Virus record (IMG/VR): IMGVR_UViG_3300037189_011463 | Location: 1-23,519 of that record | Source: a virus | Direction: 5' to 3' (one strand) | Length of the DNA stretch: 23,519 nt | Shown: in pieces, positions 9,425 to 22,550 of the stretch | Layout: each line of letters opens with the position of its first letter | Numbering within the stretch: position 1 is the stretch's first letter | The notes under the pieces: model-generated | Told to the model about the DNA's origin: nothing | Seen by the model: only the letters and a program-made list of their open reading frames with translations | The model's database searches: none | Position numbers and translations under genes: made by a program

Positions 9425-9426
9425 CA

Positions 9427-9645: not shown

Positions 9646-9657
9646 CAAGGAAATTTA

Positions 9658-9990
9658 ATGCCTACAAGATATAAGATTTTTGGTCAACAGTCGCCCGGAC
9701 CCAACACGTTAAGTAGATTATATACTGTCCCTTTGGCACAGAGTGCAGTTGTTTCTACAGTAACTGCATGTAACTATAATGTAACTAATACCACTTTTAG
9801 AATAGCGCTTGTTCCTAGTGGAAGTCCTTTATTTCCTAATGCATATATAGCATATGACACAGCATTACCTGCGCAAGATAGCATTGCACTTTCCTTAGGC
9901 ATTACAATGGGAGCAAATGATTCTATTCAAGTATTTGCTTTTTCGGGTAATGTTGCCTTTAATGCATTTGGTGCAGAGCAATTCAACTAA
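9658..9990 (+). CDS. Small virion protein, paralogous to the FReD-fibre N-terminus
   Basis: A 110-residue beta-rich protein. From start to end it parallels residues 1-120 of the protein encoded at 20887-22113: RYKIFGQ versus TYKILGQ, SLYT/RLYT then a loop, TACNYN versus GLNICNR, IALVPSG versus SAAVIPPMG, AYIAYDTALPAQDSIALSLGITMGANDSIQVFAFSGNVAFNAFGAEQ versus AYFLAANIAINAGDNIGMVLGATLDANTQI...NLYGAER (segments quoted only in part). The shared unit is therefore a stand-alone version of a virion anchor or collar domain. AAGGAAATTTA before the ATG is a good ribosome site. It lies in the late tail cluster. Confidence 0.8.
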   Translation: MPTRYKIFGQQSPGPNTLSRLYTVPLAQSAVVSTVTACNYNVTNTTFRIALVPSGSPLFPNAYIAYDTALPAQDSIALSLGITMGANDSIQVFAFSGNVAFNAFGAEQFN

Positions 9991-10002
9991 TTGAAATGAA
10001 AA

Positions 10003-10929
10003 ATGAGCACAAGAAGATTTTCGACAAGAAATCACGCAGGTGAAGGTAAGCGCGCAAATTCACGTAACAATCGCCCAGATATATCTGCTCTAGGGTTCTC
10101 CGGTCCTCCAGCAATAGATTATTATCTGGTTGGAGGTGGTGGCGCAGGCAACGAAGGTGGCGGTGGTGCCGGCGGCGTCTCTTCAGGAACTATTCAAATA
10201 GGAAGCGGTGCATCTCCCAACGTAAAAGTAAATGTCTCAGTAGGTGCAGGCGGAACTGCCGGTAGTAGAGGTAGCAATACTACAGTTTCAACTCCTGTTT
10301 TTACGGGGTATGGAGTAGGCGGAGGAGGAGAGCAATCACCTGGTGGATCAGGAGGCGGCGCAAGACGAGACGTACCAAATAATGAAGGCAGAGGTTTAGG
10401 ATTTCCCGGACAAGGTAATCAGGGCGGAGACGGTTCGGGTAATGAACATGCTGGCGCAGCAGGAGGCGGTGGATTTTCCCAAGCAGGAAATAGAGGTGCT
10501 TCAGGCGGCGGTGGTCCAGGAGGAGAACGAGGCGGCAAAGGCGGTAACGGTACAACCAATAATTGGATAGGACCAACTATAGCTTATGCCGGAGGCGGTG
10601 GCGGCTCTTCTCAAAATGATATTTACGCACCACCTAGCGAAGGTGGTGGAGGCGGTGGCGGAGGACCTGGCAGAAATGGTGCAACCACTTTTGGCTTTGC
10701 GGGAAATGTAAACACCGGAGGCGGTGGCGGTGGAGCACAAAGTGGTCCAGGCGGTAATGGCGGATCTGGTACTGCGATCCTAAGATATCCTACAGCATAT
10801 ACAGCGGTTGCTATTACTGGAAATGTGGAAACGTTCAATAATGTGAGTGGTTATACTGTATATAAATTTAACGGTCCAGGTATTCTAAGTTTTACTCCTC
10901 TTAGAAATTATGTTGATCATTCGGATTAA
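10003..10929 (+). CDS. Glycine-rich adhesin-like protein (second copy)
   Basis: A 308-residue protein. A basic 40-residue N-terminus (MSTRRFSTRNHAGEGKR) is followed by IDYYLVGGGGAGNEGGGGAGG, then Gly-rich runs (GG, GGGG, GGxGG) across about 45-255. A C-terminal non-glycine domain begins ILRYPTAYTAVAI and ends VYKFNGPGILSFTPL. The arrangement matches the next gene (IEYALVGGGAGG start; IRYPVIYGNAY and TWTGPGSITF end), so the two are tandem paralogues. The family is known in phages as fibre-tip adhesins with polyglycine-II helices or as glycine-rich tail proteins. The start has only a weak ribosome site; it begins 12 nt after the previous stop. Confidence 0.82.
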   Translation: MSTRRFSTRNHAGEGKRANSRNNRPDISALGFSGPPAIDYYLVGGGGAGNEGGGGAGGVSSGTIQIGSGASPNVKVNVSVGAGGTAGSRGSNTTVSTPVFTGYGVGGGGEQSPGGSGGGARRDVPNNEGRGLGFPGQGNQGGDGSGNEHAGAAGGGGFSQAGNRGASGGGGPGGERGGKGGNGTTNNWIGPTIAYAGGGGGSSQNDIYAPPSEGGGGGGGGPGRNGATTFGFAGNVNTGGGGGGAQSGPGGNGGSGTAILRYPTAYTAVAITGNVETFNNVSGYTVYKFNGPGILSFTPLRNYVDHSD

Positions 10930-10937
10930 GAATAGTT

Positions 10938-12131
10938 ATGAGTATTACAAATTTCAATAGTAGAAAAATTAGTAGAACTAGATTCAATGATAGAAATCTA
11001 CCTAACATCTTTTCTAAATTAGATACCTCACGACCAGTATTCATAGAATATGCTTTAGTAGGTGGTGGCGCAGGTGGGGGACAAGGGGGCGGTGGTGCTG
11101 GCGGTGTAGCCAGAGGAACTCTAATATTAACTACTGGTTCTAATTCTACAGTATCAATATCTATTGGCGGTGGTGGCGGAGTAGGTAATACTCCTACTGC
11201 ATCGGGTCAAGCAGGTATTCACGCTGGTTCTAATGGCAGTCCAAGTTCAATAACTACCCCTGCAGGTAATGTGGGATTAACCTCATTGAGTATTATTGCT
11301 GCAGGCGGTGGTTCGGGTGGCGGTGCGCCAGGTGGAGGCAATCAAGGTATGGGATGGCCTGGTGGTTCAGGTGGAGGTCATGGGCGGGATGCTAGTAATA
11401 GTATATTTTCCGCTAATCTATATGGTTTAACCCCTAATATACTACAAGGAAGTCCGGGCGGGTTTCAATCAACCGCAGGTATTTTTGGTGGGAGCCCAGG
11501 TGCTGCTACAAATCAATTAGGTGGAGCTGCAGGTGGCGGAGGTTATTCACAAGCAGGAAGCCCAGGTCAAGCTGGAGGCGGAGATAACACGCAAGAAATT
11601 GGCGGTTATGGTGGTAATGGTTTAATTATAAATTGGAGATGGGCAAACGAAGCATTCGCTGGAGGTGGAGGCGGTGCATCTCAATCTGAAAACGGCGCAG
11701 GTGTAACTACTAACACTCCAGGTAATCCTACTAGAGGCGGTGCATTTATGGGAGGTGTAGGTGGCATAGGTGGGGGCGGATGGGGAGGTGGACCAAAAGG
11801 TGCAAATGTTCTATATGGTGCATCTATTGCAGGTACAGGTGGTGGCGGCGGAGGAGCAACATCTCCAGGAATGAGCACTGCGGGATCTGGCGGTAGATGT
11901 ATGATTCGCTATCCGGTGATATATGGTAATGCATATTCAACTGCAGGGTCTCCGAATATTATGTTAAGTCCAGATGGGAATCTTTCAAATAATCAAGGGT
12001 ATTGGGTATTTACATGGACAGGACCCGGATCAATAACTTTTCCAGGTGGTCCTGCGGGCAATCAAGGCATTTCTGATAACGACGTAAGAGCTTATCTTTC
12101 TGGGGCTTTCCCGCCCGCAGGAGGAATTTAA
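10938..12131 (+). CDS. Glycine-rich adhesin-like protein (third copy, longest)
   Basis: A 397-residue protein: a basic N-terminal 35 residues (SRKISRTRFNDRN), a strand-rich entry VFIEYALVGGGAGGGQGG, about 270 residues of Gly clusters with interspersed Asn/Ser/Ala loops, and a C-terminal domain RCMIRYPVIYGNAY...WVFTWTGPGSITF. It is a tandem paralogue of the gene at 10003, with the same order of segments but longer, differing loops, as expected where host range is under selection. It starts 8 nt after its neighbour. The likely place is the distal fibre or other surface-exposed virion part; the receptor is unknown. Confidence 0.82.
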   Translation: MSITNFNSRKISRTRFNDRNLPNIFSKLDTSRPVFIEYALVGGGAGGGQGGGGAGGVARGTLILTTGSNSTVSISIGGGGGVGNTPTASGQAGIHAGSNGSPSSITTPAGNVGLTSLSIIAAGGGSGGGAPGGGNQGMGWPGGSGGGHGRDASNSIFSANLYGLTPNILQGSPGGFQSTAGIFGGSPGAATNQLGGAAGGGGYSQAGSPGQAGGGDNTQEIGGYGGNGLIINWRWANEAFAGGGGGASQSENGAGVTTNTPGNPTRGGAFMGGVGGIGGGGWGGGPKGANVLYGASIAGTGGGGGGATSPGMSTAGSGGRCMIRYPVIYGNAYSTAGSPNIMLSPDGNLSNNQGYWVFTWTGPGSITFPGGPAGNQGISDNDVRAYLSGAFPPAGGI

Positions 12132-12147
12132 CTTATGAGAGGATAAA

Positions 12148-12561
12148 ATGGGGCATTTTGCAAAAGTAATAAACGGCATAGTTGATACTGTCATAGTTGC
12201 TGATCAAGAAGATATTGATAGTGGCAGACACGGCGATATATCTCAGTGGATTCAAACAAGTTATAATACCAGAGGTGGAGTACATTATATCTCAGGTACA
12301 AATCAACCATCTGATAATCAAGCAAAAGCTTTAAGGAAAAATTATGCAGGTCCTGGGATGACGTACGATGCACAAAGAGACGCATTCATACCAGTAAAAC
12401 CATATCCAAGTTGGATATTAAATGAACAATCTTGTACCTGGGATCCCCCGGTACAGCTACCCGCAAATGATGGTCAACCGCACCCGCAAGGTGGTGCAAT
12501 TGGCTATAATTGGGACGAGGAGAATCAACAATGGGTACTAAACTGCCTACCACTAGAATAA
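12148..12561 (+). CDS. Conserved small phage protein of the tail cluster
   Basis: A 137-residue soluble protein with the sequence style MGHFAKVINGIVDTVIVADQ...WIQTSYNTRGG...NYAGPGMTYD...FIPVKPYPSWILNEQSCTWDPPV...YNWDEENQQWV. From memory this pattern recurs in T4-like cyanophages and other marine myoviruses near fibre genes; no function is established that I know of. Tryptophan-rich repeats of the type W-x-L/W-D-P resemble fibre-assembly or attachment modules. GAGAGGATAAA before the ATG is a strong ribosome site. It is the last gene of the late tail cluster, followed by an inverted repeat and a new promoter. Confidence 0.82.
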   Translation: MGHFAKVINGIVDTVIVADQEDIDSGRHGDISQWIQTSYNTRGGVHYISGTNQPSDNQAKALRKNYAGPGMTYDAQRDAFIPVKPYPSWILNEQSCTWDPPVQLPANDGQPHPQGGAIGYNWDEENQQWVLNCLPLE

Positions 12562-12566
12562 TCAAA

Positions 12567-12607
12567 TTTGAAAGCCTCGGACAAACCGGGGCTTGACATC
12601 TTTCAAA
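12567..12607 (+). repeat. Nested inverted repeat enclosing the -35 box; possible terminator/operator
   Basis: Outer arms TTTGAAA (12567-12573) and TTTCAAA (12601-12607) are perfectly complementary. Inside, GCCTCGG (12574-12580) pairs with CCGGGGC (12586-12592) with one G-U, around the loop ACAAA. The right-hand bulge between the stems, 12593-12600, contains the TTGACA -35 box. As RNA the inner stem could end late tail transcripts, but there is no proper U-tract. As DNA it could be an operator. Confidence 0.5.
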
Positions 12608-12621
12608 ACATACTATATAAT
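12593..12621 (+). promoter_or_regulatory. Consensus sigma-70-type promoter for the envelope genes
   Basis: TTGACA (12593-12598), a 17-nt spacer and TATAAT (12616-12621): both hexamers match the consensus exactly. The expected start is near 12628, giving a leader of about 60 nt before the ATG at 12689. Such a host-type promoter points to early or constitutive expression of the glycine-zipper and SleB genes, unlike the late tail genes before it. Confidence 0.85.
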
Positions 12622-12630
12622 TAGGCATGC

Positions 12631-12669
12631 GATAAGAAGGTAACCTTATCCTCTACGTAAATTCGTAGA
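12631..12669 (+). promoter_or_regulatory. Two hairpins in the mRNA leader
   Basis: GATAAG (12631-12636) pairs with CTTATC (12645-12650), and TCTACG (12652-12657) pairs with CGTAGA (12664-12669) around TAAATT. Both lie between the predicted transcription start and the AAAAGGT ribosome site of the gene at 12689. No known riboswitch is recognised. They may stabilise the message or bind a regulator. Confidence 0.5.
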
Positions 12670-12688
12670 CTTCTTAAAAGGTAAAATC

Positions 12689-13156
12689 ATGAAAAAATTA
12701 ATACTGATAGGTACTCTTTGCCTTTCTAGTTTGGCAATGGCCGAAGTGAGAGTTCAAAATACAAATAAGATGCCGGGGGTAAATACGCCTGTTGCAAAAG
12801 TTATAGAATCAATTCCAGTATACCAAGATGAAAAGGTATCAAATAAGGATTGTACTCAGAATAATAACGAAGGAATAGGGGCTCTTTTAGGAGCTGTTAT
12901 AGGTGGAGCAATTGGAGCACAACATAACGCCGTTTATGCAATTACAGGAACAATAATTGGCGCAGGAATTGGTTCTGATATAGCTAGTCCATCCAAGGGA
13001 GCAAGGCAAGCATGTGCATCCCAAAATAGATCATATTCAAAAATAATTGGATATGATGTAAAATATGTATATGATAATTTAATATACATACAAAGACTTG
13101 ATTATGATCCGGGTGTTGGTTCTTTCTTAAAGACATCGATAGCCGTTACAAGGTGA
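12689..13156 (+). CDS. Exported glycine-zipper envelope protein (17-kDa antigen/SlyB type)
   Basis: A 155-residue protein. A signal peptide (MKKLILIGTLCLSSLAMA) has a likely cut after A18; no lipobox cysteine is present, so it is probably not lipidated. Residues 62-98 form a glycine zipper of two hydrophobic stretches, GIGALLGAVIGGAIGA and ITGTIIGAGIGSDIA, as in the 17-kDa surface antigen/SlyB group of outer-membrane proteins. The C-terminus (IGYDVKYVYDNLIYIQRLDYDPG) fits the family's beta-rich tail. Two cysteines (C55, C109) could form a disulfide in the periplasm. It is driven by its own consensus promoter with a structured leader and followed by the SleB-type gene. A phage copy might change the outer membrane, for instance for superinfection exclusion; this is inference. 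Confidence 0.85.
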   Translation: MKKLILIGTLCLSSLAMAEVRVQNTNKMPGVNTPVAKVIESIPVYQDEKVSNKDCTQNNNEGIGALLGAVIGGAIGAQHNAVYAITGTIIGAGIGSDIASPSKGARQACASQNRSYSKIIGYDVKYVYDNLIYIQRLDYDPGVGSFLKTSIAVTR

Positions 13157-13182
13157 GCGTGTTCAACAACTAGGAGGAATAG

Positions 13183-13740
13183 ATGAAAATAAGCATAACT
13201 GCTTTATTCAAAGCTATTAGCCTTACGCTTTTATTATGCATGTACACAGATGTGCCAAGTATTAGCGCCAAAACTTTAGAAATTAACGTAATAGATATAC
13301 AGACACAATACGAAAGAGCAAAACAGAAACATATAAGTTTAACAAAACAAGAAAATTGTTTAACTAAAAACATATACTACGAAGCAGGCTCAGAACCCTT
13401 CGAAGGTAAAATTGCTGTTGCTCAAGTTACAATGAACAGAGTAGAATCTGGAAGATTTCCTAGTTCGATATGTGGCGTAGTATATCAAAAAGATAAAATT
13501 GAAGAAAAGACAATTTGTCAATTCAGTTGGTTTTGTGAAGATTATGCAAATAAGCCTGTAAATAGAGAACGATGGGCAGAGAGTAAAGAAGCAGCTAGAA
13601 AAGTATTATTTAATAATGTACGTCTAGCTAAATTAGAAGGTGCTTTATACTTTCATAATGATCAGGTAAACCCCAAATGGGGCAAACGAAAAGTAGCAAA
13701 AATAGGCAGACACATATTTTATGCAGAAAAACGAAAATAA
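13183..13740 (+). CDS. Exported SleB-family cell-wall hydrolase (putative endolysin)
   Basis: A 185-residue protein. The N-terminus has a positively charged start and hydrophobic core (about residues 8-28, ISLTLLLCMYTDVPSISA) consistent with a Sec signal or signal anchor. The catalytic domain spans about 58-182: CLTKNIYYEAGSEPFEGKIA, then VAQVTMNRV and the Cys pairs C97 and C112/C118 in ICGVVY, CQFSWFCE. E67 is the expected catalytic glutamate of SleB-type peptidoglycan lytic enzymes. The ending with KIGRHIFYAEKRK also fits. GGAGGAATAG upstream is a strong ribosome site. It is co-transcribed with the glycine-zipper gene and could act as a self-exported lysin without a holin; no holin is recognised nearby. 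Confidence 0.88.
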   Translation: MKISITALFKAISLTLLLCMYTDVPSISAKTLEINVIDIQTQYERAKQKHISLTKQENCLTKNIYYEAGSEPFEGKIAVAQVTMNRVESGRFPSSICGVVYQKDKIEEKTICQFSWFCEDYANKPVNRERWAESKEAARKVLFNNVRLAKLEGALYFHNDQVNPKWGKRKVAKIGRHIFYAEKRK

Positions 13741-13942
13741 TTTGCCAAGATATACCGCTAATGTATCAGAGATTCTTGAGGATGGATCAGCAGTATTAGA
13801 TCTTCCTCAAGAACTTCTAGACGAAACTGGGTGGGAAGAAGGCACCGAACTAATTGTTGAGGAGAAAGATGGAACAATTATTCTCTATAGAAAAGATAAC
13901 AACAAAACAGGGAGCACATCTGATACAGTATTACCCCTTTAG
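13721..13942 (+). CDS. AbrB/MazE-like small DNA-binding protein
   Basis: A 73-residue acidic protein. Residues about 10-57 (ANVSEILEDGSAVLDLPQ, then ELLDETGWEEGTELIVEE and GTIILYRK) match the swapped-hairpin SpoVT-AbrB pattern of antitoxins and transition regulators: a strand, the L-P hinge, a helix, then G-W-x-x-G and two strands. No toxin gene is adjacent, so it is more likely a stand-alone phage regulator or a structural copy. It overlaps the SleB gene by 20 nt, and its last 74 nt overlap the next gene in another frame. The C-terminal tail (NNKTGSTSDTVLPL) is probably disordered. Confidence 0.75.
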   Translation: MQKNENNLPRYTANVSEILEDGSAVLDLPQELLDETGWEEGTELIVEEKDGTIILYRKDNNKTGSTSDTVLPL

Positions 13943-14045
13943 CAGAGACGGGGTAGCGTGGAGATGTGTCAGTTGTGGCGATATTTGGCTCAAGCAAACA
14001 AGTGCAAATACTCACATATGTGACGGGCGGTTATTAGATATATAA
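13869..14045 (+). CDS. Small zinc-finger-like protein (58 aa)
   Basis: A 58-residue protein with WRCVSCGDIW (C35xxC38) and a later HIC (H50, C52), a CCHC-like arrangement for one zinc. ATG at 13869 was chosen because AGGAG lies just upstream (TTGAGGAGAAAG before the ATG); a TTG 15 nt earlier is also in frame. The first 74 nt overlap the AbrB-like gene in another frame, so its first 24 residues come from overprinted sequence and may be less conserved. It ends before the intergenic dyad at 14048. Function unknown. Confidence 0.65.
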   Translation: MEQLFSIEKITTKQGAHLIQYYPFSRDGVAWRCVSCGDIWLKQTSANTHICDGRLLDI

Positions 14046-14047
14046 TA

Positions 14048-14077
14048 TTAACAACTTAATAATTATTAAAGTGTTAA
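14048..14077 (+). repeat. 30-bp near-perfect dyad upstream of a promoter
   Basis: Arms 14048-14062 (TTAACAACTTAATAA) and 14063-14077 (TTATTAAAGTGTTAA) are reverse complements at 13 of 15 positions, with no spacer. The dyad lies 12 nt upstream of the -35 box at 14090. Being all AT at the centre it would be a weak hairpin, so an operator for a dimeric regulator is more likely than a terminator. Confidence 0.6.
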
Positions 14078-14089
14078 TTCAAAAAGTGC

Positions 14090-14118
14090 TTGACAACTGT
14101 ACCATTTTGTGCTATAAT
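14090..14118 (+). promoter_or_regulatory. Consensus sigma-70-type promoter, extended -10
   Basis: TTGACA (14090-14095), a 17-nt spacer and TATAAT (14113-14118), preceded by TGC (extended -10). The spacer end CCATTTTGTGC is nearly repeated in the promoter at 19824. Transcription is expected to begin close to 14125, which is the first base of the ATG of the following gene. Confidence 0.85.
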
Positions 14119-14124
14119 AGTGGT

Positions 14125-14430
14125 ATGATGAGAAAAAAGAGATCTGATCGTAGACATATCGTATATAGTATCACCAACACAGTAACGGGTGACTTCTATA
14201 TAGGTATTACTCAGGGCTTTCGTCAGAAAGACCTTAAAATCCGTATACAAAAACATATTAGAAGAGCATTGACCGAAGATAAAAATTGGTCATTGTGCAA
14301 AGCCATTCGTAAGTTTGGCCCTGAGCAATTCTATGCACAAATTTTAGAAGTTGTACGAGGTAAACCTGTAGCACATAAACTTGAACGTGAATTTATTAAT
14401 CAATATTCACCAAAACTTAATAGTCAATAA
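14125..14430 (+). CDS. GIY-YIG endonuclease, apparently leaderless
   Basis: A 101-residue protein with a complete small GIY-YIG domain: HIVYSITN (11-18, the GIY strand), DFYIGIT (23-29, YIG), R40 in LKIRIQKH as the likely catalytic arginine, and E89 in KLEREFINQY as the metal-binding glutamate. Such proteins nick DNA and are usually homing endonucleases. Because the -10 box ends at 14118, the ATG at 14125 (followed at once by another ATG at 14128) sits at the predicted transcription start. An earlier in-frame start at 14071 would lie upstream of the promoter and is rejected. It heads the run of small genes that follows, with a 9-nt gap to the next. Confidence 0.82.
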   Translation: MMRKKRSDRRHIVYSITNTVTGDFYIGITQGFRQKDLKIRIQKHIRRALTEDKNWSLCKAIRKFGPEQFYAQILEVVRGKPVAHKLEREFINQYSPKLNSQ

Positions 14431-14439
14431 GGATATATT

Positions 14440-14778
14440 ATGAAACTCGTTATTCAAACACAAGTATATGAAAACTATGGCGCACACACTTGGGATGGCA
14501 AAGGTGAATGCCCTCAGTATTGGAAAGCTAAAGGCGGAGATGACTATTGGTATGATTTAGGCGAATATAGTCGTAGTGGGCAATCTATTCGTAGTCTAAT
14601 AGATTTTTTCCGTCCTCGTGTAGAGTCAAATGATAATTACTTTCGTGAACACATCGTGTATTTTAGTATTGAGAAGGACAGCTATCTTACTCCTTACGAG
14701 CAAGATCAACTTGATTATGATGGTCAGATTCAGTTTCCAGCTAAGCAATTATTTATTCGAGAAGAGGTAGCAGCATGA
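14440..14778 (+). CDS. Conserved phage protein of unknown function
   Basis: A 112-residue acidic, aromatic-rich protein (MKLVIQTQVYENYGAHTWDG...). It has no signal, membrane segment or zinc motif; Trp/Tyr/Asp clusters (GGDDYWYDLGEYSRSG) suggest a compact soluble fold. From memory, proteins with this N-terminal pattern are common in T4-like marine phages. TAAGGATATATT before the ATG gives a moderate ribosome site, and the stop overlaps the next start by ATGA. Confidence 0.8.
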   Translation: MKLVIQTQVYENYGAHTWDGKGECPQYWKAKGGDDYWYDLGEYSRSGQSIRSLIDFFRPRVESNDNYFREHIVYFSIEKDSYLTPYEQDQLDYDGQIQFPAKQLFIREEVAA

Positions 14779-15080
14779 GTGCACAAGAAGATAAGGATAA
14801 GCGAAGCAAACGCTTGCTAAAAGATCAAAATGCAATCAATAAGCAAGTACGTATTGCAAAAGATTACCATATGCATAAGAATGGTAAATGGAAGTATATT
14901 GAACAACCACATCGAAACCATAAGACACATATTTTGAATTGTGGTGATCCTAAATGCACAATGTGTATGAATCCTAGAAAAGCGTTTGGCGAAAAGACAA
15001 TGCAGGAATTGAAATTTGAGCAAGATGTAGAAACTATACGCGATAAACGCAGCAATGGAACCCCTATGGAGAATCTATGA
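14775..15080 (+). CDS. Basic protein with CxxxxCxxC motif
   Basis: A 101-residue, strongly basic N-terminal half (DKDKRSKRLLKDQNAINKQ) followed by PHRNHKTHILNCGDPKC and TMCMNPRKAFG: C56, C61 and C64, with histidines H46, H49 and H52 before them, could bind one zinc. The C-terminal part is a charged helix (QELKFEQDVETIRDKR). This type is frequent in marine T4-like phages (from memory); function unknown, nucleic-acid binding plausible. It is coupled by ATGA to both neighbours. Confidence 0.8.
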   Translation: MSAQEDKDKRSKRLLKDQNAINKQVRIAKDYHMHKNGKWKYIEQPHRNHKTHILNCGDPKCTMCMNPRKAFGEKTMQELKFEQDVETIRDKRSNGTPMENL

Positions 15081-15283
15081 GTGACCGATTTGATTTGGAG
15101 CAGCAAATATTGGATTGTTGGAGAGTGACAGACGACATTAACATACTTTATGATAGGCAGGAATATATGTCCAAAGATGAACAAATGAATTACTTACTTG
15201 GTTTGAATTCTTTATATAAGCAGAAGTTTGATATACTCTGGTCTACTTTTGAACAACTTGTTCATGACAAGAAGCTCACATGA
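15077..15283 (+). CDS. Small acidic conserved phage protein
   Basis: A 68-residue helical protein, MSDRFDLEQQILDCWRVTDDINILYD..., ending FDILWSTFEQLVHDKK. Similar small proteins with FDLEQQI-CW-VTDDI occur widely in T4-like phages (from memory) with no known role. Its ATG overlaps the upstream stop. The last 20 nt contain the -35 box of the promoter at 15264, so the transcription unit appears to be topped up here. Confidence 0.8.
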   Translation: MSDRFDLEQQILDCWRVTDDINILYDRQEYMSKDEQMNYLLGLNSLYKQKFDILWSTFEQLVHDKKLT

Positions 15284-15292
15284 ATATATAAT
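15264..15292 (+). promoter_or_regulatory. Sigma-70-type promoter
   Basis: ATGACA (15264-15269, five of six to consensus), a 17-nt spacer, and TATAAT (15287-15292). It spans the 3' end of the preceding gene. The predicted start near 15299 gives a leader of about 24 nt with ACGGAGATGTGA before the ATG at 15323. Support is good but the -35 lies in coding sequence. Confidence 0.6.
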
Positions 15293-15322
15293 TAGCATAT
15301 AAACACTAATACGGAGATGTGA

Positions 15323-15475
15323 ATGATGCGAGAGTTTTCCTTTTATTTAGATGCATGGAAATTTTGTTATCTAAACAAAATACCATTAGACCGCATTCAA
15401 AAGCGTTCATGGGGCGTTTGGATAGTTGAGTATGGTAACAAGAAGGTGGTGGAAGCTGCGCCAGCAGTTGCATGA
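15323..15475 (+). CDS. Small phage protein (50 aa)
   Basis: A 50-residue protein, MMREFSFYLDAWKFCYLNKI...RIQKRSWGVWIVEYG..., with an aromatic-rich amphipathic N-terminal half and a basic middle. CGGAG upstream is a good ribosome site; a second ATG follows directly at 15326. The stop overlaps the next start by ATGA. Similar short proteins are known in T4-like phages (from memory); no function recognised. Confidence 0.75.
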   Translation: MMREFSFYLDAWKFCYLNKIPLDRIQKRSWGVWIVEYGNKKVVEAAPAVA

Positions 15476-15660
15476 GACCGCTGACTCCCCTAGAGTTAAT
15501 AATCGTTTGTATATTAGCATTTGCCATTGTGATATTCCTTACTGTTGGATTCCCTAGGCAAAATGCTAAGCACCCGTGCGAAATTATAGAACTAAACGGG
15601 TCGGCTGACTATAAAGAAGGTTGCAAAAATTTAAAGGAATGGTATGAAAAGAGCTCCTGA
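15472..15660 (+). CDS. Small single-TM protein
   Basis: A 62-residue protein with one membrane helix at about 7-28 (LELIIVCILAFAIVIFLTVGF) and a soluble tail with two cysteines, C36 and C51, flanked by charged residues (HPCEIIELNG, KEGCKNLKEWY). The short N-terminus before the helix and the Cys pair suggest an N-in, C-out topology with the tail in the periplasm. It is coupled by ATGA to the upstream gene and overlaps the next by 17 nt. It could be a lysis accessory, but no known family is recognised. Confidence 0.75.
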   Translation: MRPLTPLELIIVCILAFAIVIFLTVGFPRQNAKHPCEIIELNGSADYKEGCKNLKEWYEKSS

Positions 15661-15862
15661 GGATAAACCTAATACAGGCATAACTATAGATTATGAAACT
15701 GCTGATAGAATAACTATTGGCAATCTACGGAATCTTTCAGAAATGCTTAAAGATGAAAATATGAGTGGGAGATATTTAAATATTGATAAGGACTATAACG
15801 ACACTATTATCAATTCTATTAACAATATTTTAGATTATATGGGAGCAGCAGATGAATATTAA
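15644..15862 (+). CDS. Small conserved hydrophilic protein
   Basis: A 72-residue soluble, mainly helical protein (TIDYETADRITIGNLRNLSEMLK...). The pattern YETADRIT...L...LK resembles small hypotheticals of T4-like marine phages (from memory). No motif gives a function. The start overlaps the previous gene by 17 nt, and its end overlaps the entericidin-like gene by 11 nt, implying coupled translation through this run. Confidence 0.75.
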   Translation: MKRAPEDKPNTGITIDYETADRITIGNLRNLSEMLKDENMSGRYLNIDKDYNDTIINSINNILDYMGAADEY

Positions 15863-15980
15863 AATGCTTTTACTAATTAGTATAGTATGTTTTATCACAG
15901 CATGTAATACTACAGCTGGGCTAGTAACAGGTGCAGGCAAAGATCTACAAAGCTTAGGTGGTTGGATTTCTACAAAATAA
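15852..15980 (+). CDS. Entericidin-like mini-lipoprotein (42 aa)
   Basis: A 42-residue protein. A hydrophobic signal (MLLLISIVCFITA) ends in a lipobox ITAC with the lipidated cysteine at position 18, followed by NTTAGLVTGAGKDLQSLGGWIS. This is the layout of the entericidin A/B family: lipobox, CNT, a Gly-rich turn, KD/ED-(L/I)-Q, then GG. Bacterial entericidins are tiny membrane lipoproteins of an antidote/bacteriolytic pair. A phage version might weaken the envelope or exclude other phages. The +2 residue after Cys is Asn, not Asp, so outer-membrane sorting is expected. Only one of the A/B pair is visible. It overlaps the upstream gene by 11 nt. Family assignment is by eye. Confidence 0.7.
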   Translation: MNIKMLLLISIVCFITACNTTAGLVTGAGKDLQSLGGWISTK

Positions 15981-15992
15981 CGAGGATATATT

Positions 15993-16169
15993 ATGATTAC
16001 GAAACAGTATTTTACAAGCAAAGATGAATATATTGCAGTATTACAGACAGAGGCAGAAACTCTACGTCGCTATTACTATAACCCTAGTACTGAAGGCACT
16101 GGTCATTTTAATACTGCAATATCTGTATTAGAACAACGTATTCAAGAATTGCAAGATGAAAGAGCCTGA
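15993..16169 (+). CDS. Small phage protein (58 aa)
   Basis: A 58-residue hydrophilic, probably helical protein (MITKQYFTSKDEYIAVLQTE...), with an aromatic-Arg centre RRYYYNPSTEGTGH and a C-terminal helix VLEQRIQELQDER. CGAGGATATATT upstream gives a moderate ribosome site. It starts 12 nt after the lipoprotein gene and overlaps the next gene by 14 nt. Not recognised. Confidence 0.7.
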   Translation: MITKQYFTSKDEYIAVLQTEAETLRRYYYNPSTEGTGHFNTAISVLEQRIQELQDERA

Positions 16170-16293
16170 ACTAAAGAAGTTCATATGTAAAGTGTGTAAA
16201 ACACAATACTTTGATACTAAACTTTATTTCTTTGGTAATAAATCTGAAAAATGTCTTTGGTGTACTAAATATCCTAAAAAGATAAAAAAATGA
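16156..16293 (+). CDS. Small zinc-ribbon-like protein (45 aa)
   Basis: A 45-residue basic protein with C11xxC14 (FICKVCKTQYF) and C33xxC36 (EKCLWCTKYP), a minimal four-cysteine zinc ribbon, and a Lys-rich tail (KKIKK). It overlaps the upstream gene by 14 nt and the next by ATGA. GCAAG upstream is a weak ribosome site, suggesting translational coupling. Nucleic-acid binding is plausible, not shown. Confidence 0.72.
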   Translation: MKEPELKKFICKVCKTQYFDTKLYFFGNKSEKCLWCTKYPKKIKK

Positions 16294-17120
16294 AATTGAA
16301 AAATGCTATATTGGCATCTTTATTATGTTCTATTATTCCTGCTCATGCGGAATGGTATAAAACTTCAGCAGATGAATACTTCGGTCCCGAAGTATCAGAA
16401 AAGACTGCTTGTCGCAATGCTGAGAACACAGCATTAAGCGGAGCTATTCAAAGAGCAACAGGTCAAACTATTACTGCATCACAATTTCAGATATGCAACG
16501 ACACTAATAAGTATAAGACTGCAAATAAAGATATATGTCAATTGTTGACTTCAACATCTGCAACCACAGAAGGAATAGTTGTTGCAATCAGAGATAAATC
16601 TCAAGAAGTTATACAATTAACTAATCAAAGAATATGCAGAGTGTCTCTTGAAGCAGATATTAAAAGAGATGCTGGTCAAATAGATACAAGCTTTGACCCC
16701 GAGATTCGATTAGAAAAGACAATGCTCAAAGATGGTGAAACAGTTAGAGTTATTGTAAGACCAAACGTTCCATTGTATATAACTTTATTTGTATACTCAC
16801 CGTATCTTCAAGAATTCGAACAGGTTCAAAGAATATATCCAAACAACTTTGAACCTAGTAAAAGAATTAAACACTATACAGAATTCCCATCAAGAGATTC
16901 TGCCTACTCGTTTAATGCATATTTTCCTTCGTCGTATGACGATACCGAGCAAGTAGGGGAAATATTAATTGCTGTAGCAACAAAGACAGAAATTCCTTTT
17001 AGAACACGTTTTAACTTTGCGGAATTTAATTCCCGTTTGCAAGAGATTCCAAAGAGTGATCGAAGGATAGTTAAAATACCTTATTTCATTGCATCATCTA
17101 AATCTGAGAAGTTTCGTTAA
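16290..17120 (+). CDS. Secreted DUF4384-type envelope protein
   Basis: A 276-residue protein with a Sec signal peptide (MKLKNAILASLLCSIIPAHA), cut after A20. Residues 21-125 form a first domain with paired cysteines (C41, C69, C83, C116) and the phrase ACRNAENTALSGAIQRATGQ, similar in style to N-terminal domains of flagellar/outer-membrane accessory proteins. Residues about 137-235 look like DUF4384: LKDGETVRVIVRPNVPLYI, then TLFVYSP and RIYPN. These are periplasmic or surface proteins of Gram-negatives. The next gene, an LPP20-type lipoprotein, begins 2 nt later; such pairs occur in bacterial envelope operons (from memory). Function in the phage unknown; both family calls need a profile search. 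Confidence 0.72.
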   Translation: MKLKNAILASLLCSIIPAHAEWYKTSADEYFGPEVSEKTACRNAENTALSGAIQRATGQTITASQFQICNDTNKYKTANKDICQLLTSTSATTEGIVVAIRDKSQEVIQLTNQRICRVSLEADIKRDAGQIDTSFDPEIRLEKTMLKDGETVRVIVRPNVPLYITLFVYSPYLQEFEQVQRIYPNNFEPSKRIKHYTEFPSRDSAYSFNAYFPSSYDDTEQVGEILIAVATKTEIPFRTRFNFAEFNSRLQEIPKSDRRIVKIPYFIASSKSEKFR

Positions 17121-17122
17121 TT

Positions 17123-17722
17123 ATGAAAGATATCAAAATGAGAAATCTAACTATAATCGCAGCCATGCTAGCAATGGTAGGATGTAGTACCCCTAGCCCA
17201 GGTTCACGTGAAGCAATTCATAAAGAAATGGTTAAGTCTGTAGACAATATGCCTAGTTGGTATACTAAACCACCAAAGGATCCTGAAGCCCTTTATGATC
17301 GTGCATCAGCTAGATCTCGAGATATGCAAATGGCAATTAATAAAGCCCTTATGCTAGCAAGAGCACAGATGGCAGTAACAATTGACGGTGAGATTAATTC
17401 TACAATGAAATTATTCATGGATGAGATAGGGCCCTCGCGTTCTGCAGATGTTTCTAATCAGGCATCCGTAACTACATATCAAGATGCGTTGTTAGTTAAG
17501 CTATCTGGTCTTCAGCAAGAGGATGCTAAGATTCTAGTAGAAGGCGATCAATATGTTGCATATGTATTGATTAAATATCCAATAGGTGAAATGAATAAAA
17601 TGCTGATGGATCGAGTCCATCAGAACAATGCATTGGCAGCTAAATTGCGAGCAAGTGCATCATTTAAAGAACTAGAAAGAAAAGTTGAAGAGGCACGTAA
17701 ACGTGAGATGAAAAATGATTAA
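17123..17722 (+). CDS. LPP20-type outer-membrane lipoprotein
   Basis: A 199-residue lipoprotein. The signal and lipobox (IIAAMLAMVGC) put the lipidated cysteine at C21, followed by Ser, which predicts outer-membrane sorting. An alternative ATG at residue 6 would not change this. Residues about 43-160 fit the LPP20 pattern: MPSWYTKPP, then AINKALMLARAQMAVTIDGE, a variable loop, and ILVEGDQYVAYVLIKYP. The last 35 residues are a charged coiled coil (KELERKVEEARKREMKND). LPP20 proteins are found with flagellar outer-ring and CsgG/LpoB-like envelope factors in bacteria. It is 2 nt downstream of the DUF4384-type gene and presumably works with it. It overlaps the next gene by 8 nt. Confidence 0.75.
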   Translation: MKDIKMRNLTIIAAMLAMVGCSTPSPGSREAIHKEMVKSVDNMPSWYTKPPKDPEALYDRASARSRDMQMAINKALMLARAQMAVTIDGEINSTMKLFMDEIGPSRSADVSNQASVTTYQDALLVKLSGLQQEDAKILVEGDQYVAYVLIKYPIGEMNKMLMDRVHQNNALAAKLRASASFKELERKVEEARKREMKND

Positions 17723-17927
17723 ATTTATATTGCTTATTTTACTCGTTTTAATGTTACCCATTATTGCAATTAAACGAGGCGAGCTAAATGAGTCACAAAA
17801 GAACTTTGATAACTGCTTAACATATTTTGACCGCATGCCTTTGCACGAAATCAAACCGTTATGTCGAGATATATTAGATGGTGTTAAGAAAACTGATCCG
17901 TTTGAGGATCCGGAGCTACATAGATGA
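17715..17927 (+). CDS. Small membrane-anchored protein
   Basis: A 70-residue protein with an N-terminal hydrophobic segment at about 2-19 (IKFILLILLVLMLPIIAI) followed by KRGELNESQKNFDNC and a soluble tail with cysteines C34 and C49. The run could be an uncleaved anchor or a signal peptide without a clear cut site. The pattern NFDNCLTYFDRMPLHEIKPLCRD suggests an intramolecular disulfide if exported. It overlaps its neighbours by 8 and 4 nt. Its close coupling to the LPP20-type gene makes a joint envelope role possible. Confidence 0.75.
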   Translation: MIKFILLILLVLMLPIIAIKRGELNESQKNFDNCLTYFDRMPLHEIKPLCRDILDGVKKTDPFEDPELHR

Positions 17928-18136
17928 GTGTATGGCGAAAACGACAGATTACTGATTATGATATGATTAAACTATTTGAGCAAGAGTACACTGGCGATCA
18001 GATTGAAAGAATCACTATGGATTTGCAGCAAGCATTTGATCCATTGTATAATGCAGCAATGGTTGCTATTCCCGCAAATGAAGATAACTCAATGATGGGT
18101 AAGTTTAAAGTTAGAGTCGAATGGATTGATGCATGA
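17924..18136 (+). CDS. Small soluble phage protein
   Basis: A 70-residue acidic protein (MSVWRKRQITDYDMIKLFEQEYTGDQIERI...) with a basic start and a helical middle, then a strand-like end, GKFKVRVEWIDA. There is no signal, cysteine or known motif. Coupled by ATGA on both sides. Not recognised. Confidence 0.72.
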   Translation: MSVWRKRQITDYDMIKLFEQEYTGDQIERITMDLQQAFDPLYNAAMVAIPANEDNSMMGKFKVRVEWIDA

Positions 18137-18276
18137 TATTCATTAGTATAATATTTTGTATATTGTTCTGGCATTGGTCAATGATAGCATTCGAAGAGGG
18201 TAGTATGGGGTGGGGATATTGGCACCTATTCTGGTCTGCTTTAAATGCCGCTTTTGTCCTTGGGCGTATCTTTTAA
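18133..18276 (+). CDS. Small hydrophobic membrane protein (47 aa)
   Basis: A 47-residue protein with a hydrophobic first helix (MIFISIIFCILFWHW) and a second aromatic-rich segment, GWGYWHLFWSALNAAFVLGRIF. It resembles small phage inner-membrane proteins with two short helices. No known family is evident; lysis- or membrane-associated roles are guesses. It is coupled by ATGA to the upstream gene and ends 2 nt before the inverted repeat that holds the late promoter. Confidence 0.7.
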   Translation: MIFISIIFCILFWHWSMIAFEEGSMGWGYWHLFWSALNAAFVLGRIF

Positions 18277-18278
18277 TT

Positions 18279-18308
18279 CCGTAAAACTATAAATATTATT
18301 ATTTACGG
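18279..18308 (+). repeat. Inverted repeat enclosing the late promoter box
   Basis: CCGTAAA (18279-18285) and TTTACGG (18302-18308) are perfect reverse complements; one U-G and one U-A pair could extend the stem. The 16-nt loop contains the TATAAATA box (18288-18295). On read-through RNA this would be a hairpin just after the small-gene run; on DNA it gives dyad symmetry around a late promoter. Confidence 0.6.
18288..18295 (+). promoter_or_regulatory. T4-type late promoter box TATAAATA
   Basis: An exact match to the T4 late box in the 40-nt gap before the LxE-punctuated gene at 18317. With transcription starting some 6-7 nt past the box, the leader would be about 15 nt. It supports late, virion-time expression of that gene. 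Confidence 0.78.
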
Positions 18309-18316
18309 GATTTAGC

Positions 18317-19651
18317 ATGAAAACCTTACGAAAGCTTAGAGAAGGTCTTAAAGTAGTAGCAGTTGACACTTTAGGTAAAACTATTCCCAAGAGCAAGATC
18401 AATAGCCTGCAGGGTGCCATAATGAAACGAGATATTCAGGGCACTAGACAGGACGAGTCCACCATGGGTGTTGGTGAGATTGACGCTGGTCTATATACTA
18501 AAAAGAATACATATCCAAAGACCAAAACAAAGTCTGCTGCTGTAGGGGAGACCTCTAATCCCGCATTTCACAATCCCTTTAGTTCGACTAAATCCTCATC
18601 TACTGTAGATAAAATACAAAAAGCTAAGACTAGAAAAATCAATCAACCTGGTCAAGGTGTGTATAAGAAACAGACTCCATCTACACGAAAACGTGTTGTC
18701 AATAATTATATGAAAATGCTTAAGGATATTGGTGAGCAAACAGAATATACTGTTAAGCACGGAGATACTGAACAAACAGTTAATGACTACGATCACGCTA
18801 TAAACAAAGCTCGAAGCATTTTAGCATACGGTAAAGCAAAAGAAGTTTATATTCATACCAATGGTAATCCTACGCATAAATGGCAACTTGGCAAGCATAT
18901 CGAAAAGATAAAAGAAGAAGTTGATCTTGATGAGGCAGTTGAAGTTCAGTCACATCATTATGAATTTAGCCATGGCAAGCGCCCGGCAGGGGAAGGTATG
19001 TGGATGTTTACTCCGCATAAAAATATTGATTTTTCTAAGCATAAAGAGGGTGAGCACTATATCAGCGTGCATGGCAAATATGGTGAGGCTAAAAAGAAAG
19101 CACAGCAATGGGCTAAATCAAAAGGTCATCGTATCATTAAAATAGCTGAAGAAGTTGAACTAGATGAAGCTAAGCGTCCAGATAGACCACTACCTAAAAC
19201 CAACTTACGTGTTGGAGATAAAGTCGTAGCTGATACAAGTAAAGAAGATTATCCTGGCGGACACAAACAACGTGTAGGTGTAGTCACACGAGTTGGCGAA
19301 AAGGGTGTTCATATTAAAACAGATGATAGCAACGAACCAGAATGGCATCCGCATAAAATTGTAAAAAAGCAGATGAATGAATTAGATGAAGCAGGTCGCT
19401 GTTGGACAGGATATAAACCTAAACCAGGTAAGAAAGCATATTCACCAGGTTCCTGCGTAAAAGAAGAAGAAGTTTTTGATCAATTAGATGAAAGAGGTTT
19501 AGATGTAGGTCATCAAAAGAGACAAATGTCTAAACACTTTGATAGATATATTCAAGCTGTGCGTGCAGGCAAATTTAATCAAGCAAGAATGCACTACAAG
19601 AAATATAATGAGCATAAACAAACACTGCAGAAAACAGGCCATACAACTTAA
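18317..19651 (+). CDS. LxE-punctuated multidomain protein, putative head-packaged polyprotein
   Basis: A 444-residue, very basic protein with a low-complexity first third (Lys/Ser/Thr-rich, 10-135). Small globular units follow, each ended by an acidic linker with Leu-Asp-Glu: EEVDLDEA (204-206), EEVELDEA (282-284), NELDEA (356-358) and FDQLDER (390-392). LRE at 7-9 and IGE at 138-140 also fit the (L/I)xE rule of the T4 prohead protease (gp21). The resulting units are about 10-140, 141-206, 207-284, 285-358, 359-392 and 393-444. Unit 285-358 (LRVGDKVVADTS, GVVTRVGEKGVHIKTDD) looks like an SH3/KOW barrel; the unit after 358 starts GRCWTGYKPKPGKK with C362 and C380. The upstream late promoter supports a virion role. 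Cleavage is an inference. Confidence 0.75.
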   Translation: MKTLRKLREGLKVVAVDTLGKTIPKSKINSLQGAIMKRDIQGTRQDESTMGVGEIDAGLYTKKNTYPKTKTKSAAVGETSNPAFHNPFSSTKSSSTVDKIQKAKTRKINQPGQGVYKKQTPSTRKRVVNNYMKMLKDIGEQTEYTVKHGDTEQTVNDYDHAINKARSILAYGKAKEVYIHTNGNPTHKWQLGKHIEKIKEEVDLDEAVEVQSHHYEFSHGKRPAGEGMWMFTPHKNIDFSKHKEGEHYISVHGKYGEAKKKAQQWAKSKGHRIIKIAEEVELDEAKRPDRPLPKTNLRVGDKVVADTSKEDYPGGHKQRVGVVTRVGEKGVHIKTDDSNEPEWHPHKIVKKQMNELDEAGRCWTGYKPKPGKKAYSPGSCVKEEEVFDQLDERGLDVGHQKRQMSKHFDRYIQAVRAGKFNQARMHYKKYNEHKQTLQKTGHTT

Positions 19652-19653
19652 TA

Positions 19654-19812
19654 ATGTATACAGATGATCAAAAGAAAGCAATTGAAGATTGTATTAACGA
19701 TTTAATAATTGCTAAGAAACTTATACCCGTAAAGAACAAGACCGACTTCCATAAAAAAGTCGGTTTTCAGTTTGCTATCGAATATCTTAAAGCAAAATTA
19801 GCAAAACAATAA
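19654..19812 (+). CDS. Small phage protein (52 aa) containing a terminator-like hairpin
   Basis: A 52-residue basic, helical protein (MYTDDQKKAIEDCINDLIIAKK...IEYLKAKLAKQ). It starts 2 nt after the upstream stop, with no clear ribosome site. Its middle (codons for TDFHKKVGF) coincides with the hairpin at 19741-19764, so either the gene tolerates the terminator or the ORF is chance. The reading frame is composed like its neighbours, which mildly favours a real gene. Confidence 0.55.
   Translation: MYTDDQKKAIEDCINDLIIAKKLIPVKNKTDFHKKVGFQFAIEYLKAKLAKQ
19741..19767 (+). terminator. Rho-independent-like terminator
   Basis: ACCGACTT (19741-19748) and AAGTCGGT (19757-19764) form a perfect 8-bp stem around the loop CCATAAAA, followed by T at 19765-19767 (TTTT including the last stem base). 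The stem is strong but the U-tract is short. It would end the late transcript of the LxE gene, before the promoter at 19824. Confidence 0.6.
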
Positions 19813-19823
19813 TAAAATAATGC

Positions 19824-19852
19824 TTGACTTCTTGTCCATTTTATGCTATAAT
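19824..19852 (+). promoter_or_regulatory. Sigma-70-type promoter, extended -10
   Basis: TTGACT (19824-19829), 17-nt spacer, TATAAT (19847-19852), preceded by TGC. The spacer and -10 run CCATTTTATGCTATAATA differs from that of the promoter at 14090 in one base. The predicted start is near 19859, with AAGGAG before the ATG at 19880. Confidence 0.82.
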
Positions 19853-19879
19853 AAGATATAATGAAGATAAGGAGAAACA

Positions 19880-20071
19880 ATGAGTCGCAAAACCAAAGAG
19901 CAAATTAAGCAAATGACAGCAGAAGAACTGCACGTCGAAATGGAAATGGTCTACGAATCTATGCAGCATTGGAAAAGGTTAGGTGATAGCGGTGACTTTG
20001 GTCGAGCATTGCAAGATGCAGGTTATTATGAGTTACGTGATCAATTAGAGAAACTTACGGAGGCTAGTTAA
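19880..20071 (+). CDS. Small phage protein (63 aa)
   Basis: A 63-residue highly charged helical protein (MSRKTKEQIKQMTAEELHVEMEMVYESMQ...). The TAEEL-type phrase and heptad-like pattern suggest a short coiled coil. AAGGAG 7 nt upstream is a good ribosome site. It is the first gene of the 19824 promoter. Function unknown. Confidence 0.78.
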   Translation: MSRKTKEQIKQMTAEELHVEMEMVYESMQHWKRLGDSGDFGRALQDAGYYELRDQLEKLTEAS

Positions 20072-20072
20072 T

Positions 20073-20225
20073 ATGGGCTGGAAACTTAATGCTTTTCTAA
20101 ATAAGAACTTTCCGAGAGTTCTTAGTGTATTGCAAAATTACACCATTCTAGAATGGGTAATTACATTTGGAATTATGTATATACTATTCATTGTTCTGTT
20201 AGGTATATCATTTTATTCTAAGTGA
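20073..20225 (+). CDS. Small single-TM protein (50 aa)
   Basis: A 50-residue protein with an amphipathic basic N-terminus (MGWKLNAFLNKNFPRVLSVLQN) and one membrane helix at about 25-47 (ILEWVITFGIMYILFIVLLG). ACGGAGGCTAG upstream is a strong ribosome site. Its stop overlaps the oxygenase start by one base (TGATG). No known family; might be a membrane-associated phage factor. Confidence 0.75.
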   Translation: MGWKLNAFLNKNFPRVLSVLQNYTILEWVITFGIMYILFIVLLGISFYSK

Positions 20226-20863: not shown

Positions 20864-20886
20864 TCCTATAGTCTTAGGAGCTAATT

Positions 20887-22113: not shown

Positions 22114-22124
22114 TGGAGAATAAA

Positions 22125-22505: not shown

Positions 22506-22512
22506 CTATTAT

Positions 22513-22541: not shown

Positions 22542-22550
22542 AGCATAAAA

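What the first reader, a model, noticed from the sequence alone, without database searches (positions are those of the whole stretch)
12689..17722. Dispersed set of envelope-directed genes in a phage accessory block
Within 5 kb there are an exported glycine-zipper protein, an exported SleB-type hydrolase, a single-TM protein, an entericidin-like lipoprotein, a secreted DUF4384-type protein and an LPP20-type lipoprotein. All carry signals for inner membrane, periplasm or outer membrane, and several sit behind strong host-type promoters, not late ones. Inference: a phage programme that rebuilds the host envelope early (exclusion, lysis priming or surface change).
Basis: partly seen in the sequence, partly recalled or inferred. 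Interest (0 to 1): 0.7.

Follow-up and report, generated by a model that had tools for sequence, protein, structure and literature searches.

The report
Phage outer-membrane lipoprotein pair, bacterial relatives
Several kinds of virus of bacteria carry a matched pair of genes for a secreted protein and an outer-membrane lipoprotein, and bacteria carry the same pair next to a caspase-like protease, which makes an unstudied way in which viruses may alter the envelope of their host testable.

Summary
The genes are real, but not six equal parts. Hydrolase_2 (SleB-type) is firm. The glycine-zipper and entericidin labels stay below Pfam cut-offs. The durable core is the last pair: an exported protein with a DUF4384-like domain (16290-17117) and an LPP20-like lipoprotein (17123-17719). 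Alone they fall just under Pfam cut-offs; relatives and a predicted fold (H. pylori Lpp20, Z 12.1) support both. IMG/VR holds 365 stretches encoding relatives of the lipoprotein. In marine T4-like phages the order is exported protein - small membrane protein - LPP20 - SleB; at least three other phage types carry the DUF4384-LPP20 pair among replication genes. Bacteria carry homologues of both genes, usually adjacent and next to a caspase gene, in Gemmatimonadota and once each in two other phyla sampled. My searches of a held library found no paper on the phage pair or on this operon. Early-type promoters precede the block in the window and the lipoprotein in 8 of 15 T4-like representatives. 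An early programme that conditions the host envelope is therefore better supported than a late lysis cassette, but no function is shown. Most novel reading: the phage pair interferes with a caspase-linked envelope system.

The parts
12593..12621 (+). consensus sigma-70 type promoter TTGACA-N17-TATAAT upstream of the glycine-zipper gene
   Evidence: 12 of 12; 2 such sites in the window, 0.04 expected
12689..13156 (+). exported small protein with glycine-rich repeat (glycine-zipper-like), 155 aa
   Evidence: sequence; Pfam 18 bits against 25; no tblastn match in 50,697 phage records
13183..13740 (+). exported cell wall hydrolase, SleB type (Hydrolase_2), 185 aa
   Evidence: 97.7 bits against cut-off 27; PHROGs endolysin 1e-21
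15264..15292 (+). promoter-like site ATGACA-N17-TATAAT, 11 of 12, upstream of the run that leads to the core pair
15472..15660 (+). single-TM protein, 62 aa, two Cys in the predicted periplasmic tail
   Evidence: no Pfam family
15852..15980 (+). small lipoprotein, 42 aa, lipobox ITAC; entericidin-like only in size and topology
   Evidence: Pfam Entericidin 14.9 against 23.3. A small lipoprotein also precedes the module in many T4-like phages
16290..17120 (+). CORE 1: exported protein, N-terminal FlgT_N-like stretch plus DUF4384-like beta-sandwich, 276 aa
   Evidence: full-length homology to the bacterial partner
17123..17722 (+). CORE 2: LPP20-like lipoprotein, 199 aa, lipobox Cys21
   Evidence: predicted fold matches H. 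pylori Lpp20 5ok8, Z 12.1, 106 residues, 2.9 A
17715..17927 (+). single-TM protein, 70 aa, overlaps the end of the LPP20 gene; two Cys in the tail
   Evidence: position analogue of the small TM genes of relatives, homology not shown

Best explanation
The core is a mobile two-gene envelope module: a secreted periplasmic protein (FlgT_N-like stretch plus DUF4384-like domain) and an LPP20-like lipoprotein. Shown by sequence: the pair is conserved, adjacent, present in at least four phage genome types, and homologous over its whole length to a bacterial gene pair that usually sits beside an exported caspase-type protease. Inferred: the lipoprotein is sorted to the inner face of the outer membrane, docks its periplasmic partner there, and is made early from host-type promoters. 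The role I think most likely is to condition the envelope of the infected cell (exclusion of further phages, or blocking of an envelope stress or death response) while the phage replicates; in T4-like relatives a small inner-membrane protein and a dedicated wall hydrolase were added. Confidence: identity and partnership about 0.85, early expression about 0.6, this class of function about 0.4.
For: Conservation: 365 IMG/VR stretches encode LPP20 relatives, 80 fetched. In the 79 loci with a usable centre, of 70 with at least 900 bases upstream 57 have the exported partner within three genes and 54 a small TM gene directly upstream; of 74 with 600 bases downstream 49 have SleB next. After reduction to 23 representatives below 85% DNA identity, 15 have the partner and 8 SleB. 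Exported partner of the T4 type is homologous to the window's N-terminal part (hhalign 91.9%, E 7e-7, 56 columns). Mobility: the window's LPP20 lies in a 100/100 supported clade with five proteins of other phage types. Cellular pair: phage DUF4384 against bacterial, hhalign 98.0%, E 1.4e-13, 231 columns; phage LPP20 against bacterial, 99.95%, E 9.7e-38, 187 columns. In 150 Gemmatimonadota-phylum genomes LPP20 is in 13, the DUF4384 protein in 11, both in 10, and in 7 of these 10 they are adjacent in the phage's order. Position among early genes: DNA polymerase upstream and helicase downstream (L005), DnaB-type helicase and exonuclease (L021), primase upstream and terminase downstream (L018), late-transcription coactivator, helicase loader, thyX and ssDNA-binding protein downstream in Melnitz. 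Promoters. Lipobox Cys invariant in 13 of 13, none with Asp at +2 (the +2 rule is recalled).
Against: No expression, localisation or interaction data. Promoters are consensus matches; one search finds 42 looser sites against 36.9 expected. The late motif is not clearly depleted in the module (1 in 25.6 kb against 15 in 159.7 kb, 15 representatives). SleB next to the lipoprotein in T4-like phages suits lysis too. 13 of 70 loci lack the recognisable partner, including the isolates Mosig and HTVC008M, though an exported small protein often fills the place. The FlgT_N label rests on one Pfam match at E 0.016 of 17. Exclusion itself has no direct evidence.
Confidence: 0.42

Rival explanations
1. 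Lysis module: SleB is the endolysin or an accessory wall hydrolase, the small TM protein a holin-like regulator, and the LPP20-DUF4384 pair disrupts the outer membrane in the way spanins do.
For: SleB-type hydrolase directly downstream of LPP20 in 49 of 74 loci; PHROGs calls the hydrolase endolysin; exported protein, TM protein and lipoprotein resemble lysis-gene topologies; weak spanin matches, phrog_1267 E 0.085 and phrog_16495 E 0.034. In T4 the endolysin gene is also read from an early promoter (statement seen in PMC9004378).
Against: Placement among replication genes in four phage types; no SleB match in 14 of 15 further records searched, which carry LPP20 (records may be fragments); bacteria keep the same pair without lysis genes beside it; T4-like relatives have a separate GH108 enzyme (cluster 11); early-type promoters.
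Confidence: 0.25
2. Decoy or immunity reading: the phage pair mimics the non-protease half of a bacterial caspase-DUF4384-LPP20 envelope system and titrates or blocks it, preventing caspase-driven death of the infected cell.
For: Same two genes in the same order, homologous over full length; caspase homologue beside the pair in 8 of 8 Gemmatimonadota-phylum loci, Peptidase_C14 over cut-off in 4 of 4 tested, and caspase-DUF4384-LPP20 in order in L119; no caspase in 10 of 10 phage records searched.
Against: Hosts of these phages are mostly unknown, and no host was shown to carry the operon; the bacterial operon is not known to be a defence system; phage and bacterial LPP20 proteins separate in the tree, though weakly (59/64).
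Confidence: 0.12
3. Ring or scaffold reading: the pair assembles an outer-membrane ring like FlgP/FlgT of the flagellar motor.
For: LPP20, FlgP, FlgT and dodecin share an SHS2-like fold (PMC12222027, passages); the LPP20 model also matches FlgT 3w1e, Z 5.6, 70 residues.
Against: The model shows a low-confidence helix, not a beta-hairpin, in the insert that the paper links to ring formation; Z 5.6 is in the range of common arrangements; A3 against A5 gives 2.9%.
Confidence: 0.08
4. Ordinary unrelated accessory genes that happen to be exported; no joint role.
For: The glycine-zipper protein, 15472, 15852 and 17715 have no demonstrated homologues in the module of other phages; the enrichment is modest.
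Against: Does not explain the conserved order of the core pair across phages and bacteria. It remains likely for the peripheral genes.
Confidence: 0.13

Closest known systems
H. pylori Lpp20 and the LPP20 family (PF02169; FlgP belongs to the broader fold)
   Same: lipoprotein signal, SHS2-like fold: 5ok8 Z 12.1, rmsd 2.9, 106 residues
   Different: window protein below the Pfam cut-off (18.3 against 25.9); phage-borne; paired with a DUF4384 protein
Bacterial caspase - DUF4384 - LPP20 operon (Gemmatimonadota; single cases in Marinimicrobiota and Bacteroidota searches), found here
   Same: two homologous genes in the same order
   Different: the phages lack the caspase gene (10 records) and add a small TM gene, or SleB in T4-like phages
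T5 Llp and Cor superinfection-exclusion lipoproteins
   Same: phage-encoded lipoprotein acting from the periplasmic side of the outer membrane; exclusion proteins are made early in many phages (PMC9586334, passages)
   Different: no meaningful sequence match (8a60_B E 0.71); much larger, and has a secreted partner
CsgGF curli-pore genes of Melnitz and pelagimyophages
   Same: outer-membrane secretion-type proteins borrowed by related phages, in the same genome region of Melnitz (PMC9004378, section 9 part 1 and passages)
   Different: other proteins, about 9 kb away; the module described here is not discussed in the parts I read
SleB / Hydrolase_2 cell wall hydrolases
   Same: domain far over cut-off in the window and in Melnitz gp77 (77.8 bits)
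   Different: in the window separated from the core pair by about 2.5 kb

Membership tests
LPP20 (PF02169) | Pfam gathering score | tested here: inconclusive
   window 18.3 against 25.9; 5 of 13 phage relatives match at E <= 0.1, best 9.9e-7; 2 of 15 phage records over cut-off in a whole-record search. Filed as LPP20-like.
LPP20 (PF02169) | lipoprotein signal with lipobox Cys | tested here: met
   Cys21 invariant in 13 of 13; no signal-peptide predictor was available
LPP20 (PF02169) | Lpp20-type SHS2 fold | tested here: met
   5ok8_B Z 12.1, rmsd 2.9, 106 residues, model pLDDT 72.8
FlgP (flagellar basal disk) | beta-hairpin insert between SHS2 helix and second strand | tested here: inconclusive
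   model shows helix 108-124 with pLDDT about 50 there; criterion from PMC12222027
DUF4384 (PF14326) | Pfam gathering score | tested here: inconclusive
   window 25.1 against 27; 4 of 17 aligned relatives match at E <= 0.1, best 5e-8; bacterial partner L095 29.4 over cut-off. Filed as DUF4384-like.
FlgT_N (PF16548) | profile match | tested here: inconclusive
   1 of 17 members, E 0.016
Hydrolase_2 / SleB (PF07486) | domain over cut-off | tested here: met
   97.7 bits against 27
Hydrolase_2 / SleB (PF07486) | cell wall hydrolysis | not testable with these tools
   needs an enzyme assay
Entericidin (PF08085) | Pfam gathering score | tested here: not met
   14.9 against 23.3
Glycine zipper (PF13488, PF13441, PF05433) | Pfam gathering score | tested here: not met
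   18 against 25, 15.7 against 28.9, 13.9 against 24.2
Spanin (PHROGs Rz-like) | profile match | tested here: inconclusive
   E 0.085 and 0.034, covering mostly the signal region
T5 Llp / Cor exclusion lipoproteins | sequence relationship | tested here: inconclusive
   8a60_B E 0.71 over the first 38 positions
Superinfection-exclusion protein (function) | blocks infection by a second phage | not testable with these tools
   needs expression and plaque tests

The most novel reading that the evidence does not exclude
Phages of several unrelated types carry the non-protease half of an undescribed bacterial envelope system (exported caspase - DUF4384 protein - LPP20 outer-membrane lipoprotein) and use it early as a decoy or immunity pair to keep an envelope-sensing caspase from killing the infected cell.
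Probability: 0.12. Interest if true: 0.88.

Novelty: new variant of a known kind. Interest (0 to 1): 0.6.

Why it matters
LPP20 and DUF4384 proteins have no agreed biochemical role outside flagella and a few Helicobacter antigens (recalled). A pair that is kept together in several phage types and in bacteria, next to a caspase in the latter, gives both families a partner and a testable context. If the pair acts early on the outer membrane it is a candidate host-takeover module of abundant marine phages; if it touches the caspase it links phage infection to a protease system in the bacterial envelope. [quoted passage not shown]

Tried and rejected
Entericidin and glycine-zipper membership: scores below cut-off. 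Six-gene programme: dropped, because only the core pair and, in T4-like phages, SleB are linked in relatives. FlgT_N domain of the exported protein and LPP20 as two copies of one domain: A3 against A5 gave 2.9%. PDB sequence searches with the exported-protein profiles A3 and A4: no match at E <= 1. Fold search with the DUF4384 model: only generic beta-sandwich matches, best Z 7.8, none informative; its N-terminal part was barely tested. L075/L077: the exported gene after LPP20 looked FlgT_N-like by eye but did not align with the bacterial profile (0.5%); dropped from the claim. Glycine-zipper protein against the Mosig 17-kDa-antigen-like protein: E 0.15, rejected. Caspase in phage records: 0 of 10. 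DNA similarity of the whole window to phage records: none. Paper searches on the phage module or the caspase operon: LPP20 + bacteriophage (16 listed; none looks relevant by title and start of abstract), DUF4384 + phage (1, a caspase review), caspase + DUF4384 + lipoprotein (0), DUF4384 + outer membrane (1, the same review); only listings were seen. Promoter depletion test for the late motif: not informative (searches used different spans and sets, hence 0 of 64 loci in one and 1 site in the other). Rows dropped: of the 80 loci, 76 entered the neighbourhood count together with the window and three isolates; L017 (same population as the window), L004, L008 and L023 were left out as repeats; L074 had no complete gene; several T4-like rows were left out of A5 after coordinate errors.
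Full report
WHAT IS THERE. The window is a 23,519-base virus record. It matches the last part of the 42,370-base contig IMGVR_UViG_3300032320_002033 (window 6290-23519 at 99.94%, 11 mismatches; the first 649 bases at 100% in the adjoining piece). It has no DNA match in 50,697 phage records. It is T4-like: the structural protein 6581-9421 has 167 record matches, mostly cyanophages at about 41% identity, and it carries ribonucleotide reductase, dCMP deaminase and, on the contig upstream, primase.

FAMILY TESTS. Only the SleB-type hydrolase passes its Pfam cut-off (97.7 against 27). DUF4384 (25.1 against 27) and LPP20 (18.3 against 25.9) fall below, Gly-zipper_Omp and Entericidin further below. 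Relatives strengthen the first two: DUF4384 matches 4 of 17 aligned relatives, best E 5e-8, and LPP20 5 of 13, best E 9.9e-7. AlphaFold2 with 13 sequences gives an LPP20 model (pLDDT 72.8) whose best solved match is H. pylori Lpp20, Z 12.1 over 106 residues at 2.9 A, well above the rest. The DUF4384 model (pLDDT 73.8) has a beta-sandwich C-terminal half and no informative match.

CONSERVATION IN PHAGES. A profile of six LPP20 relatives finds 388 pattern matches in IMG/VR, of which 365 encode a relative; the best 80 were fetched. Of 80 loci examined (76 of those 80, plus the window and three isolates), 79 have a usable centre. Of 70 with at least 900 bases upstream, 57 have the exported partner within three genes and 54 a small TM gene directly upstream; of 74 with at least 600 bases downstream, 49 have SleB directly next. 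These loci are redundant: at below 85% DNA identity there are 23 representatives, 15 with the partner and 8 with SleB. Two arrangements stand out. T4-like marine phages such as the OM43 phage Melnitz (L010) have small lipoprotein - exported protein - small TM - LPP20 - SleB. Other phage types have the DUF4384 form of the partner directly before LPP20: L018-L020 (primase before, terminase genes after), L021/L025/L027 (replicative helicase and exonuclease nearby), L005/L007/L009 (DNA polymerase before, helicase after). The T4-type partner is homologous to the window protein in its N-terminal part only (hhalign 91.9%, E 7e-7, 56 columns; shared F-G-P and A-C motif). In a tree of 28 LPP20 proteins the window groups with five proteins of non-T4 types (100/100), so the pair has moved between phage types.

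CELLULAR COUNTERPART. One scan of bacterial genomes found seven LPP20 relatives. In the Gemmatimonadaceae locus L095 the gene before it has a DUF4384 domain over cut-off (29.4 against 27). In 150 genomes of that phylum LPP20 occurs in 13, the DUF4384 protein in 11, both in 10; in 7 of these 10 they are adjacent on one strand in the phage's order with gaps of about 60-220 bases, in one they are 1.6 kb apart, in one 1.6 kb apart in reverse order, and in one on different contigs. A homologous caspase-type gene precedes the pair in 8 of 8 loci fetched (one only as a contig-edge fragment); Peptidase_C14 is over cut-off in 4 of 4 tested. A sample of the L100 (Marinimicrobiota) phylum gave 7 of 100 genomes with the DUF4384 protein, a sample of the L096 (Bacteroidetes) phylum 1 of 99. 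Of the six such loci that I fetched, one (L119) has caspase - DUF4384 - LPP20 in order and one (L123) has LPP20 with caspase and DUF4384 genes nearby; the other four show no LPP20 hit, two of them on short or contig-end pieces. Homology to the phage genes covers the whole of both proteins (hhalign: DUF4384 98.0%, E 1.4e-13, 231 columns; LPP20 99.95%, E 9.7e-38, 187 columns). No caspase was found in 10 phage records.

TIMING. Two perfect sigma-70 sites precede genes of the block (0.04 expected) and an 11-of-12 site at 15264 precedes the run that leads to the core pair. In T4-like relatives a site of at least 11 of 12 lies 150-420 bases upstream of LPP20 in 8 of 15 representatives, against 0.083 expected in each; these loci are related, so they are not 15 independent trials. 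The late motif is uninformative in number. Placement among replication genes in four phage types also points to early or middle expression. None of this is a measurement.

HOW IT PROBABLY WORKS. Shown: a conserved lipoprotein with an Lpp20-like predicted fold and a conserved secreted partner, in phages and bacteria. Inferred: outer-membrane sorting (Cys21 followed by Ser; the sorting rule is recalled), docking of the partner, early synthesis. The most likely use is conditioning of the infected cell's envelope, as T5 Llp does for one receptor (PMC9586334, passages), though with a different and larger protein pair. Lysis is the main rival because SleB adjoins LPP20 in T4-like phages. The paper on Melnitz attributes lysis regulation to CsgGF and gp67 and says that Melnitz lacked other lysin-like genes (PMC9004378), but the record carries gp77, a Hydrolase_2 protein (77.8 bits). 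The flagellar comparison is structural only: FlgP, Lpp20, dodecin and FlgT share the SHS2-like fold (PMC12222027, passages), but the ring-forming hairpin is not seen in the model.

VERDICT. The interesting object is smaller and more widespread than described: a mobile DUF4384-LPP20 pair shared by several phage types and by a bacterial caspase-linked operon. I found no description of either in the searches listed under Tried and rejected, which cover an open-access library only.

Noticed in passing
window 13721-13942 (+): MazE/AbrB-like small DNA-binding ORF (26.3 against cut-off 24.7) overlapping the end of the SleB gene; no toxin gene recognised beside it.
   Followed up: no
window 14071-14430 (+): GIY-YIG nuclease gene; the perfect promoter at 14090-14118 lies inside the annotated start, so translation more likely begins at ATG 14125 or 14128.
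   Followed up: partly
window 5303-6142 (+): Multi-TM protein with a long charged middle that matches the Tetraspanin profile below cut-off (26.2 against 32.1); probably a topology match.
   Followed up: no
window 6143-6150 and 18288-18295: The only two TATAAATA motifs, before 6176-6574 and the structural gene 6581-9424, and before the 444-aa ORF 18317-19651, which may therefore be a late gene.
   Followed up: no
L010 10657-11184 (Melnitz-2 gp77): Hydrolase_2 cell wall hydrolase in a phage whose paper states that it lacked other lysin-like genes.
   Followed up: partly
L110-L117, L119, L123: Bacterial cluster of exported caspase, DUF4384 protein and LPP20 lipoprotein in genomes of three phyla; function unknown.
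   Followed up: partly
L096, L098, L101: In three Bacteroidetes loci the LPP20 gene sits between a 677-aa exported protein (PEGA domains in L096) and an ABC-transporter ATPase gene.
   Followed up: no
L010 9087-9245 and relatives: Conserved small lipoprotein (about 48 aa, ending CPVEV.GDWLNG) before the exported gene in many T4-like phages; the window's 42-aa lipoprotein may be its counterpart by position only.
   Followed up: partly
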